From NCBI GenBank assembly GCA_013350335.1, contig CM023534.1, positions 16,759,302-16,823,301 of the forward strand: a stretch of DNA of 64,000 nt. Direction: 5' to 3'. How positions within the stretch are numbered: the first letter of the stretch is position 1; every line of letters begins with the position of its first letter. Below the pieces are notes generated by a model that did no database searches, had not been told where the DNA came from, and saw nothing but the letters and a program-made list of their open reading frames with translations. Below are positions 47,327-54,218 of this stretch, piece by piece. The position numbers and the translations under genes are program-made. The DNA comes from Chimonanthus salicifolius. Taxonomy: Eukaryota; Streptophyta; Magnoliopsida; Laurales; Calycanthaceae.

Positions 47327-47399
47327 CAGGGATTAAAATACCGGTCATCCCGGTATATCGGCCGATATACCGGCCGGTAAATTTCTCTCTCTTCCCATT

Positions 47400-48387
47400 T
47401 TTTTTTTTTGTCCGATTTTTTTTGGGTAATGTCGGAAAATTTTGGGCTTCTTGAAAATATAATTTTTTCATTAAATATCGGTCATATACATACTCAAATT
47501 ATTTATTTAAGTTTCATCTATTTTTAATATTAAAATTAACAATAGATGATTTTAACTTATAAAAACATGAAAATGTCCCATCAATCCTCTCAAGTCTCAT
47601 CAATAAGTAGATCCTATTATATAATTAATCAATCTAGGAAAATTAATAATAAAAATAAAAATAAAACTTCTTATCTCATAGCTCCACACATATTAAAAAT
47701 TTGAATTAATGCCTATGTTATTGGGTAATTATAAATACATACTTACGTTTTCAATAATTTCAATTTCATTCCTAACATTTGAAAGTCATGTATAAATGAG
47801 TCTCTGTATGTATTCTGATGTGTGAATAATTTTTAGGGATAATAAAATATTAACTATGATAAGAGTCCACTTATGCTAATGTTAATATGTTATATGAGAA
47901 TGAGCAGAGTGTCTATGATTAATCATAGTTGTTCTTTATTCAATCATAATAATAAAATTTTATAAGTCTAAGATAATAAAATGACAAAAAGATTTTAGCC
48001 ATCATGTATTTATGTTGCCATGTATACACCTCACACACTTTAATAAATTGAAATTGAGTCAAATTAATTGAATAGTATTTTAAAATTCAAATTATGTTTT
48101 TAAAATTTTCAAGAAGTGGTAATAAAAGGTAAAATAGTATTTTATAAGTGAAGACCTCTAAATAATATCATATTGTTTTTTTTTTTTTAGACTATTAGTT
48201 ATCTATCAAAATTTGAATTCATTTTAAGTAAATCTCAATGAAATTGAATTTCACATCTCAAAATTTGAATCACATCAAAGCTTGTCCAAATTTTCTCAAA
48301 ACAAATGTAATATTACTATGGATCCAGCTCTTCATATGGATAACCCGGGACGTGGAAATAAAATCTTGCATACGTGTCTTCCGGAAA
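47400..48387. other. 3' flank of the transposase inside the hAT element
   Basis: About 1 kb of AT-rich DNA between the transposase stop and the left terminus. No second gene seen. It should contain the 3' UTR and terminator. Confidence 0.5.
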
Positions 48388-51300
48388 TCACTCATCATTA
48401 GACGTGTAGTCGGATGTTGATGATGGATTGTGGTACTGCCAATTATCAGATGAGGGTTGCGATTGACGATCTGAAATCGACATGGACTGCATATTACTGG
48501 ATAATGAGTTCATGTCGAAGTGCCCATAGCTCGGTTGACTATAATATCCTGTTGGCGTATATCCGAAAGATACATATCCTTCACCGAGCAAGTTTGTTCC
48601 GCCATGAGGAGGTGTATGTTGCCTATCATCCTGTTGGTAATGGACCTCACTCCTGTTGGGATAATACCCCGGTGGGCCGGCAGGCTCAACATCCACAACA
48701 ATATTTGGATGAGTAAAATCCAACCCATCATCTGATCCATTACCGTCATCGGTAGATGAATCAGAATCAGATCTAGCCGACCCATAATAACGTCTGCTGG
48801 GTTGGCTGCTCGGAACAACAGGTTCTTTTCCTCTTAATGATCTCCTCCTCTGTGAAGAGCTAGATACCCCATCTGTCCCAGTGGGCCGTTCACTAACAGA
48901 ATGACGACGTGGAGCCATCCTTGTACTTGTCTGACGTTCTAGACCCACATTTGGAGGGCGGGATACACTTATTGAATGGCGGCGACCTTCATTTTCCGCC
49001 TTGTCTTCGGAATCTTGCAATTCTCCCAACTCTATACTTTGATCTAAAAATGATATATCTAGATCATGCAGTACAGGTTGTTCTTCCTCTTCGATCCATT
49101 CACTTAATGGATCATTATAGGTAAATAAAGACTAGAGGTCGATCGGGAAGAAAAAATCATCGGCATCTTCACGTGTCAACTCAGGGTACCTCCTCAAATT
49201 CCTTGCCCTTAGCCTCTGATTGTAGTGTAGGTACACTAAATCATTAAGTCTTTGAGATGATAATCTGTTTCGAGGCTTGCTATGGACATATTTAAATGTC
49301 GACCAGTTATGCTCGCAGTTGGTTGCACTACACGTCTGGCTCATCAGCTTGATGGCATACTTCCTCAATATAGGTGAGCTGTTGCCAAAATATGTCCACC
49401 ATTGTGTAGCACTCATCGTCACCGTCTCTCTCAACCTAACATCGGCAGCTTCATCCGCAAATGACCCCAAGCGGTTCTCAAAATTGTGTAACTTCAAAAC
49501 AAAAATAAAACACAATTAGTATTATCGGATAATGAACAACTTTCAAATCATCAAAAATATGGAGATCATAATGAACAAAAGTAGTACATCTCTAAAACAT
49601 GCCGCCCGTTCACCAGGATGCATGACACCCATAATCTCCAATGTCCGTCTTACGCAGTTATGAATTGAGTTGGTCGACAGTTCTAAACCTAACTCATTAG
49701 GTTTCTTTGAGAAGGGATTCAAATAATATGCTGCCAAGTGAAATACAATGCGATTAGCCTAAATATAAGATATGCACAATAGTAAGATATAAACACACTA
49801 GCGAATAAAAAATTAACTTGCAACGAATTTTAGTTGGAGATGAAAAATTGATTAATCCTGTCGTTGATGATTTCCATGAAGTGAACCAGAGGATTAACTT
49901 TCGCAACTTCAGTTTTAGCCTTTATCATGCATTCAAATACATAGGGGAGCGTCGGCTTCTTATCTCCGTCTACAAATCGGAGTGCTGTGACTATGGGTGC
50001 AGAGATGTTGATGGCCGATACGATACTGTCCCAGAACACTTTAGATACAAATAAGTGTGTAATGTTCTGGTAATATCTTTGATGTTCAGCGTTCCTCATG
50101 TCGAACGCATTCGCAAAGTACCTACTTCTCGCCATCTTCATCAATTCTGTCTTGCTTCTTAAGAAGCTCTGTAACGTAAGGAATACTGTGGCAAAACGTG
50201 TTACTGCAGGTCGCAGTAGTTCACGACGTTTCGTGTACTTCCTCATTACCTCTAAGATTCTAACATGATTGTATATAAATGTGGTGACATCCTTACACTA
50301 GTCAATTAGATTCCCAAATTCCCTCACATTAGCAAAATCTTTGAGGATCAAGTCTATGCAGTGGGCCGCACAGGGGGTCCATAAGATCCACGGGTATGTG
50401 TTCGTGACCTTCCTCCCTCCCGACTTATAACCCGCTCCATTGTTCGTTACAATTTGGACAACATTCTCAGGTCCAATTTCTTCACAGACAGACACCATCA
50501 AGCTACAAAGAAAGTCACCATCATTTACTCGGCTTGATGTGTCGTATGATTTATGATACACTGTGCCACATTGATTATAAATGAGGAAGTTAACGATACT
50601 ACGGTTATCGTCACTCTTCCAGCCATCCGACATAAGGGTTACTCCCGTATCCTCCCAGGAAGACTTAAAATTATTTACCCATTCTCAGATCCGCTGTATT
50701 TCACGGGGGATGAACGTGGTAGAAATCTCATACGGCGATGGGAAGTTGATATTAGGTCCAGCAGTTGCGGATGCAAAGCACACAGACTTAAAATATGGAT
50801 TTAAGATTTCAGTCGGTGGCCGATGGCTGTCGGTGAAAAACTTAGTGACTGCCGTCCCAACTAATTGTTTTGCCGTCTCTTTGTCTACTTGATTTATTTT
50901 TCCTTGTTTCAAGGAAGTTGGTCTATCCCACATTGGATCACCAGCACCAACTGTATTCGGATTTACACCGTAGCGTTCAGGCCTTGCTTGTTCTCCTCCT
51001 CTGAATGCATTTTTAATGGAATTCCATCGGCCCATAAGTCCAGATTTTTTTCTGGATGATCCATGCACAGTCCCTGATCCACTCGCACCGCCTGTGTAGA
51101 GTATTAAAATTCAGTATTTGGCATTTTAATGTAATTGAGAAATAAATTGTTTTTGTTATATTAAACAATTAATTTAAAGAAATTAACCTGCACCACTCTG
51201 CTTTCTCATCTCATGTTCGCGGCGACTAATTCGCATTGCACGCCGCAGGTCTCTGTCCTCCTCAATCTCGTCTGGATCCTCTTCTGAAGACGACGGGACA

Positions 51301-51608
51301 TTTTCCATGTATTGGCCCTCCCTTTCACTTTCTAAACAGTCGGCCATTATGTGACCGATAGCATGCTCTTCTGCTTCAGTCCTTATTTTCTTTTTTTTGG
51401 CATTAACTTCCAGTAGTTGCCTGCAAATAATTTGCGCTTGTGCTGGTGCACGTTTGCAAGCGGCTACATCTCCCGTCTTTCCGGCTATATGTGCCTTCAA
51501 ACGGGTTATTCCTCCAGATACCATCTTTTCACAGAAGTTGCATTTGACTTTGTTGTTACTATGTCGTTCACTGAACGACCATGCTGGATCTTCATTGTTC
51601 TTAGCCAT
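48388..51608 (-). pseudogene. hAT transposase with four in-frame stops
   Basis: Four exons (51608-51188, 51091-49818, 49758-49588, 49491-48388) join in phase to exactly 990 codons including the terminal stop. Residues 10-51 are a BED zinc finger (W10, C23, C26, H40, C51), the DNA-binding domain. DUF659 begins after residue 240, with SDGW (catalytic Asp296) and WTPCAAHC. The usual TDN motif reads TNN at 357, so the second catalytic Asp is apparently Asn. The hAT dimerisation domain (WWTYFG at 653, CEHNWS with Glu682) follows, then an acidic Ser/Arg/Tyr-rich tail. Stops fall at codons 276 (TGA), 405 (TAG), 561 (TAA) and 742 (TAG). There is no frameshift. Each stop can come from CGA, CAG or CAA by one C-to-T change. 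Intron 2 is only 59 bp. It would cut and paste the element in the nucleus but is now inactive. Confidence 0.85.
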
Positions 51609-52950: not shown

Positions 52951-53640
52951 TTTTGTTTAAACATTTTAAATTAATAATTACGTTGCATGAAATTTATATT
53001 TTTTCACAGAACCTTCTTTCTAAAATCCGAGGGGTGTTTTATTAAAAAAAAAGCAACTTTTCCCAATAATTACTATTTCTTAATTCTTATAATGTTTTCT
53101 AGTACATTTTCACATTAGAAAATAAAAGAAAATGAAAAAAAAACCAATCTGCATGAAAAAAAAAATATCATACATTCATAATAAATTCTATGCTAAATGT
53201 TTAAGGCTTTAAGCATAAATAAATCACTATCAATAATTAATAATCCATATTTCTAAAACAACAACATATTACAAAAAATACATTAAATATTAAACTATAC
53301 ATTAAAACCATAAAATATTTAGATCAGAAGGCTAAAAAATAAAAATGGAATAAAAAATTATATGAAAATGAAGATCAATATATTTCCAGTAGTTTGAACG
53401 GAATGAACTTCTAAGATAAGCTAATAATACACAAGGATTTCTAAGATAAGCCGGATGACCGTTTGTAAGATGGGGATAGGAGTTTGAAAATACCACTGCT
53501 GGATGAGTGAGTTTCGTAATGAATTTGTGGATGAATGAGGAGATGTATGGGGTACTAATATAGTGGAAAAGTTCGGTCGGTTCAGATCACGGGTTTAAAA
53601 AAAAATATTAAGAAATTCAGGCGTGGGAAACAGAAAGAAT
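52950..53640. other. AT-rich spacer inside the hAT element
   Basis: No open frame or repeat of note between the 159-bp array and the palindrome-rich right end. Confidence 0.5.
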
Positions 53641-53659
53641 CCCACAGCCTGTTGGATGG

Positions 53660-54218
53660 GATATGATGCAGGATTCCTGGGCGATATTTTGGACGAAATA
53701 TCGCGCGATATATCGTCCGTGATATATTGCCCGATAATCGTTTAAAATATCACCGATATTAATTTTTAATTAATAAAACCTGAACCGTTACGGACCGATA
53801 TTGGCGCTTATCGGCCGATATTTTGGACCGATAAACGGTCCAAATATCGCCGATATCCAGTGCGTCCCACTACCGATAAATTTTTTTTTTTTTTAAAAAC
53901 CATACTTTCCAGCCCGATAAATAGTATATCGGGCGATATTGCGTCCGATATATGGACCGATATATCGCCCGTATCGGCCGATATTGTATTCTTTTTTTTT
54001 AAAAAAAAAAAGAAAAAAAACGTAATATACCGATATTTTCCAATATCGGCCGATATTTTCCAATATTGGGGCCGATATTGGGGACCGTTTATCGTCCATA
54101 TCGGCCGATATTCCCACTGTACGGCCGATACTTATCGTATCGGCCAATATTGATCGGTTTGAAAAAACCGATATATATCGGCCGATACGATATGTATCGG
54201 CCGATATTTAAACCTTAG
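53660..54218. repeat. Palindrome-rich right subterminal region of the hAT element
   Basis: More than a dozen CGATAT/ATATCG words and several TATCGGCCGATA-type palindromes are packed into about 550 bp, interrupted by a short T-run/A-run pair near 53985-54020. Subterminal repeats of this kind are transposase-binding sites in studied hAT elements such as Ac; the role here is inferred. Confidence 0.75.

What the first reader, a model, noticed from the sequence alone, without database searches (positions are those of the whole stretch)
47327..54218. A fully delimited 6.9-kb hAT transposon with identical 8-bp target duplications
GGTCAAAG flanks both ends exactly, the termini are inverted repeats, and a four-exon BED/DUF659/dimerisation transposase lies inside. 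Its termini and subterminal palindromes match small elements elsewhere in the window, so it is the best candidate for the autonomous family that mobilises them. Complete copies that can be linked to their MITEs from one locus are uncommon.
Basis: partly seen in the sequence, partly recalled or inferred. Interest (0 to 1): 0.75.

Follow-up and report, generated by a model that had tools for sequence, protein, structure and literature searches.

The report
Decayed plant hAT jumping gene

Summary
The borders are right. A 6,892-bp hAT element (47327-54218) lies between two identical GGTCAAAG copies in an unnamed plant genome. Of 20 further loci fetched by its left end, all 20 start CAGGG; 18 end CCTTAG, one CCTTTG, one is clipped; the 8-bp target duplication is exact in 16 and has one mismatch in 3. 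A paralogous empty site of one copy holds a single target. Target preference (nTnnnnAn) and Pfam domains (BED, DUF659, hAT dimerisation) are those of hAT.

The autonomy claim fails for this copy: its transposase frame has four nonsense codons, a one-base deletion beside the intron-2 donor, and Asn for a conserved, presumably catalytic Asp. Of 11 long copies read, one other (8,572 bp) has an open 1,003-codon spliced frame.

Non-autonomous relatives: internal-deletion derivatives, two of them at two sites each, and a high-copy 1.35-kb family with the same right end but another left end. The small element at 2732-2987 shares subterminal palindromes but has different tips; its mobiliser is unproven.

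Less usual: a ~160-bp tandem array just upstream of the transposase ATG, about 5-19 units per copy. New family of a known kind.

The parts
47319..47326 (+). Left copy of the 8-bp target duplication, GGTCAAAG
54219..54226 (+). Right copy of the 8-bp target duplication, GGTCAAAG
47327..54218 (-). hAT element, 6,892 bp; its transposase gene reads on the minus strand
   Evidence: borders shared with 20 fetched copies
47327..47440 (+). Left end: CAGGG tip, one ATCGGCCGAT palindrome, then a CT-rich stretch and a T run
   Evidence: two CGATA/TATCG sites
53670..54218 (+). Right end: 37 CGATA/TATCG sites, 6 ATCGGCCGAT palindromes, tip ...ACCTTAG
51188..51608 (-). Transposase exon 1 (ATG, BED zinc finger)
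   Evidence: PF02892 E 1.6e-7; limits by alignment with L014
49818..51091 (-). Transposase exon 2 (DUF659); carries nonsense codons at 50685-50687 and 50298-50300 and a one-base deletion near 49833; Asn at residue 357 of the L014 frame
   Evidence: PF04937 E 6.6e-43
49588..49730 (-). Transposase exon 3
   Evidence: alignment with L014
48388..49491 (-). Transposase exon 4 (hAT dimerisation region and C-terminal extension); nonsense codons at 49132-49134 and 48388-48390, the last 22 codons short of the L014 stop
   Evidence: PF05699 E 9.9e-11
51639..52943 (-). Tandem array, period about 158 bp, 8.2 units, starting 31 bp upstream of the ATG
2732..2987 (.). Related MITE (CAGGGGTTTAAA tips), one of a high-copy family
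7826..8092 (.). Older, degenerate relative; limits by eye, no target duplication recognised
   Evidence: 8 CGATA/TATCG sites

Best explanation
A cut-and-paste hAT transposon that inserted once here, duplicating GGTCAAAG, and has since decayed. In working members a four-exon gene makes a BED-DUF659-dimerisation transposase. Its BED finger probably reads the TATCG/CGATA palindromes crowded in the right 550 bp (inferred); its RNase H-like core cuts at the unlike CAGGG and CTAAGG tips (inferred from homology) and inserts into 8-bp targets of the nTnnnnAn type (shown by the duplications). The window copy cannot make a working enzyme but keeps both ends, so at most it could be moved in trans (inferred). 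Internal-deletion derivatives and a 1.35-kb family with the same right end are its non-autonomous partners; that they move by this transposase is inferred from shared ends.
For: Shared borders and 8-bp duplications in 20 fetched copies, with cross-locus control; paralogous empty sites for L028 (86% over 167 bp, one GTTTATTT) and, weaker, for L039 of the 1.35-kb family (74% over 205 columns, AAACAAAA against GAACAAAG); BED, DUF659 and hAT dimerisation domains; target preference T at position 2 in 24 of 40 and A at position 7 in 28 of 40; one open 1,003-codon spliced frame among 11 long copies; lesions of the window copy; deletion derivatives with shared breakpoints at different targets; 1.35-kb family; Hermes uses BED fingers on subterminal repeats (PMC10368747, passages) and BEAF-32B binds CGATA (PMC5021357, passages).
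Against: The right tip CTAAGG departs at its second base from the hAT tip consensus that I recall. The only solved relatives found by sequence are Hermes chains at E 0.06-0.09, over 63 residues. No binding, expression or excision is shown. The empty site of the window locus itself was not searched. The CGATA idea rests on analogy with distant BED proteins.
Confidence: 0.93

Rival explanations
1. This copy is itself the autonomous source that mobilises the small elements of the window.
For: It has both ends, exact target duplications and all three transposase domains; its subterminal palindromes recur in the element at 2732-2987.
Against: Four nonsense codons, a frameshift beside a donor and a changed presumed catalytic residue, all absent from the aligned codons of L014; tips of the MITE differ.
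Confidence: 0.02
2. The MITE family of 2732-2987 is moved by another, still unseen sister transposase whose element has CAGGGGTTTAAA tips, and its likeness to this family is only common descent.
For: Different tips; sister transposases at 59-65% identity with open frames up to 621 residues exist in the genome.
Against: The same ATCGGCCGAT palindromes and left CT-rich stretch. In the one sister locus read, L056, I found no such tips, but its ends were not found at all.
Confidence: 0.45
3. The gene is a host gene domesticated from a hAT element, not a mobile copy.
For: Many plant DUF659 proteins are annotated as genes.
Against: The frame is broken here, the gene lies inside shared mobile ends, and the 88 best of 151 DUF659-exon matches in the genome are at 91% identity or more.
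Confidence: 0.01

Closest known systems
Plant DUF659-type hAT transposases (Pfam PF02892 + PF04937 + PF05699)
   Same: Same domains in the same order. PMC3985635 (passages) calls DUF659 a hAT transposase family found mostly in green plants, with conserved RNase H-like active-site residues.
   Different: Apart from the unnamed P0002 (49% over 79% of the query), the listed homologues are 24-41% identical over the aligned part.
Hermes (house fly hAT)
   Same: 8-bp targets of the nTnnnnAn type, unlike ends with short imperfect TIRs, BED fingers on subterminal repeats (PMC10368747, passages).
   Different: Sequence match marginal (E 0.06-0.09); other subterminal motif; element more than twice as long.
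BED proteins BEAF-32 (CGATA)
   Same: A BED finger whose known target, CGATA (PMC5021357, passages), is the half-site crowded in these ends.
   Different: An insulator protein of flies; likeness of binding is an inference, not a test.
LINE-1 5' monomer arrays of mouse (recalled)
   Same: Tandem units of variable number directly upstream of the element's gene.
   Different: This is a DNA transposon; promoter activity of the units is not shown.

Membership tests
hAT superfamily | 8-bp target-site duplication | tested here: met
   30 of 33 scored copies exact, 3 with one mismatch; cross-locus control at most 6 of 8
hAT superfamily | hAT C-terminal dimerisation region in the transposase | tested here: met
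   PF05699, E 9.9e-11 in the window piece, 5.7e-9 in the L014 protein
hAT superfamily | Catalytic D-D-E residues (positions assigned from recalled hAT alignments) | tested here: met
   D296, D357, E673 in L014; among 84 homologues D 81, D 79, E 41 of 48 with a residue there. Not met in the window copy at 357
hAT superfamily | Short terminal inverted repeats with tips of the (C/T)A(A/G)NG type (recalled) | tested here: inconclusive
   CAGGG left fits; CTAAGG right does not at its second base; imperfect repeat
hAT superfamily | Target preference nTnnnnAn | tested here: met
   T2 24 of 40, A7 28 of 40, both 17 of 40
Autonomous element (the window copy) | Uninterrupted transposase frame | tested here: not met
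   four nonsense codons and a one-base deletion relative to L014
Source of the MITE at 2732-2987 | Same terminal bases on both sides | tested here: not met
   MITE family tips CAGGGGTTTAAA-like on both sides; element right tip CTAAGG
Source of the MITE at 2732-2987 | Transposition of the MITE by this transposase | not testable with these tools
   needs an excision assay
Named hAT subfamilies (Ac, Tag1, Tip100) | Placement in a transposase tree | not tested

The most novel reading that the evidence does not exclude
The family uses a self-expanding tandem array (~160-bp units, about 5-19 per copy) as its transposase promoter, comparable to LINE-1 monomers, so that array length tunes transposase supply from copy to copy; and its transposase recognises one end above all, through BED binding to TATCGGCCGATA, so that a sequence which acquires this right end becomes a passenger, as the 1.35-kb family did.
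Probability: 0.15. Interest if true: 0.55.

Novelty: new member of a known kind. Interest (0 to 1): 0.33.

Why it matters
It gives a well-replicated example of a plant DUF659 hAT family in which an open-frame copy, broken long copies, deletion derivatives and a high-copy family sharing only one end can be compared inside one genome. The unlike ends make end recognition by a plant BED-finger transposase directly testable, and the variable array upstream of the gene is worth an expression test.

Tried and rejected
A first splice model for intron 2 (donor and acceptor out of phase) gave a stop after residue 566; it was replaced by the in-phase pair, which agrees by eye with P0002. A first BLAST seemed to show long copies without the right end; a direct comparison found it in all 20 fetched copies, in L023 and L015 with a changed or clipped tip. 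L027 seemed to match its own joined flanks; by position this is the element's own right border, so it was rejected. Candidate empty sites for L009 and L024 were not borne out: the L024 alignment breaks at the junction, and for L009 one search showed only its own left flank, so its weak match was not inspected further. Sister locus L056 was read for ends like those of the MITE; none was found, and its CGATA cluster lies in what looks by eye like another small inverted-repeat element. Rfam found nothing in the window. Literature, in the held open-licence library only: TATCGGCCGATA 0 papers; at least 4 of hAT, DUF659, MITE, transposase, 8-bp TSD: 7 papers; hAT + DUF659 + transposon: 5 papers; at least 4 of 5 terms on tandem repeats upstream of hAT transposases: 0. 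By their titles none describes this element; I saw listings with abstract starts, and passages of four papers (PMC10368747, PMC5021357, PMC8097297, PMC3985635). That does not show that the family is undescribed. The host species was not identified.
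Full report
Observation. The two GGTCAAAG copies stand at 47319-47326 and 54219-54226. Two matches of an 8-mer mean little by themselves: 2.36 are expected in the window. Proof came from the genome, 852.6 Mb, in which the window lies at C3:16759302-16823301. The left 104 bp has 168 first-look candidates, of which only 40 were scored; the answer lists 47 matches, 7 of them short palindromic ones inside the same places. I fetched the 20 best places after the window's own. All 20 begin CAGGG; 18 end CCTTAG, L023 ends CCTTTG, L015 is clipped at the right tip. The 8-bp flanks are exact in 16 of 20; L012, L026 and L027 have one mismatch; L015 could not be scored. With the 1.35-kb family below, 33 copies were scored: 30 exact, 3 with one mismatch, while flanks of different loci never match better than 6 of 8 (L015, L030 and L032 were dropped before it). 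In choosing the ends I used flank identity together with terminal similarity, so the count is not fully blind; the ends agree with those that homology alone gives.

Empty sites. The site of L028 exists without the element in L049: 86% over 167 bp across the junction, with a single GTTTATTT. A weaker case is L039 (1.35-kb family) in L013: 74% over 205 columns, a single AAACAAAA against GAACAAAG. Two other candidates, L009 and L024, were not borne out. The window's own empty site was never searched, because the tool did not complete.

Gene. On the minus strand the window has BED (E 1.6e-7), DUF659 (6.6e-43) and hAT dimerisation (9.9e-11) pieces. Eleven long copies, the window's included, were aligned. 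One, L014 (8,572 bp, C11), has an open spliced frame of four exons and 1,003 codons with the same three domains; the other ten have stops, frameshifts or both. In the window copy four codons of that frame are stops (residues 276, 405, 733 and, 22 codons before the L014 end, 981), one base is missing beside the intron-2 donor, and residue 357 is Asn where all 10 other long copies and 79 of 84 homologues have Asp. Of 52 private changes of the window copy in the aligned 3.4 kb, 37 are G to A or C to T, as expected of decay of methylated plant DNA (inference). dN/dS of L014 against seven other copies, stops left out, ran from 0.24 to 0.99: a mild sign of past constraint and much relaxed drift. So this is a dead copy of a family with at least one open-frame member; whether L014 is expressed or active is not known. 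The DUF659 exon has 921 first-look candidates in the genome, 150 scored, 151 matches, the best 88 at 91% identity or more; I did not examine the whole gene at most of these. Given 102 of these 151 matches, 22 of the 40 left ends have such an exon inside within 9.5 kb.

Non-autonomous relatives. Ten of the 20 fetched copies (1.15-3.2 kb) show no BED or DUF659 exon. L011 and L021 share one pair of deletion breakpoints, L015 and L016 another, at different flanks: deletion derivatives that moved. The right 104 bp has 1,576 first-look candidates, 40 scored, against 168 for the left; these are lower-quality counts, since only 40 of each were scored. I read 15 of the 40 scored right-end places. All 15 belong to a 1.35-kb element in which I found no match to the transposase region: 13 have an exact 8-bp duplication, L032 two mismatches, and L030 has lost its left end. 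L029 and L033 have the same target and look like one duplicated site. In the 13 complete copies the last 120 bases match the window element at 117-118; the left tip is another one, CAGGGGTAAAAAAATCGGCC in 12 of 13; the copies are 97.2-99.9% alike, hence recent. The MITE at 2732-2987 belongs to a family with 2,197 first-look candidates, 40 scored. Twelve loci of it were held, the window's own included: by eye 8 have exact 8-bp duplications, 2 one mismatch, the window copy is offset by two bases with one mismatch, and L054 has none. Its tips are CAGGGGTTTAAA-like on both sides, so its link to this family is kinship, not identical ends.

How it likely works. The TATCG/CGATA half-site occurs 37 times in the right 549 bp, twice in the left 114 bp, 25 times in the MITE, 8 times in the degenerate relative at 7826-8092, and 40 times in the remaining 62.8 kb. 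Hermes uses BED fingers on subterminal repeats, at its left end and not at its right (PMC10368747, passages); BEAF-32B, a BED protein, binds CGATA (PMC5021357, passages); motifs bound by hAT-derived BED-type proteins match subterminal regions of their elements (PMC8097297, passages). I infer that the BED finger of this family reads these palindromes and that the palindrome-rich right end is the main docking end; this would explain why a family that shares only the right end has spread. Binding is not shown.

An unusual feature. An array of about 160-bp units begins 31 bp upstream of the ATG in the window: 8.2 units here, 4.8-18.8 in the 11 long copies. It accounts for much of the length difference among long copies. 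In L014 several units are identical to others of the same array, so it has probably grown recently within the element. A promoter or leader role is a guess by analogy; no promoter was sought.

Comparison with the known. It is a hAT by target duplication, target preference, dimerisation region and catalytic residues; only the right tip CTAAGG departs from the tip consensus that I recall. PMC3985635 (passages) places DUF659 among hAT transposases. Homologues with a source name are 24-41% identical over the aligned part, so the family looks new, of a known kind, but named repeat libraries of plants were not available. P0002, an unnamed protein 49% identical to L014, matches the sister locus L056 of this genome at 90-96%, so it may come from a related plant.

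Noticed in passing
window 2650-3127: The MITE at 2732-2987 sits inside an older inverted-repeat element with arms 2650-2715 and 3062-3127, 80% complementary: a nested insertion.
   Followed up: partly
L019 6849-7272 and L017 868-1292 (element coordinates): A duplication of about 213 bp in the right subterminal region is shared by the long copy L019 and the short copy L017 but is single in the window copy and L014, so L017 probably arose from an L019-like element.
   Followed up: yes
L056 1700-4336, minus strand: A sister transposase with a 621-residue open stretch, 45-57% identical to L014 by piece, and 90-96% identical to P0002. Its ends were not found.
   Followed up: partly
L056 about 7257-7632; right flank of L014: Another small element with TGACAAATA-like inverted ends (by eye); 126 bp of it are 97% identical in the flank of L014.
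   Followed up: no
window 54620-55020 and 55460-55800: Two stretches of similar text (by eye, for example 'ggacacttg.tgagagggttta') look like an old duplication beside the element.
   Followed up: no
window about 63049-63230, plus strand: By eye the start of a NAC transcription factor gene (LPPGIRFHPTDEEL motif, recalled), about 8.8 kb from the element; not tested.
   Followed up: no
L030 1-340: A receptor-kinase-like coding stretch (by eye) beside a left-truncated 1.35-kb copy; not tested.
   Followed up: no
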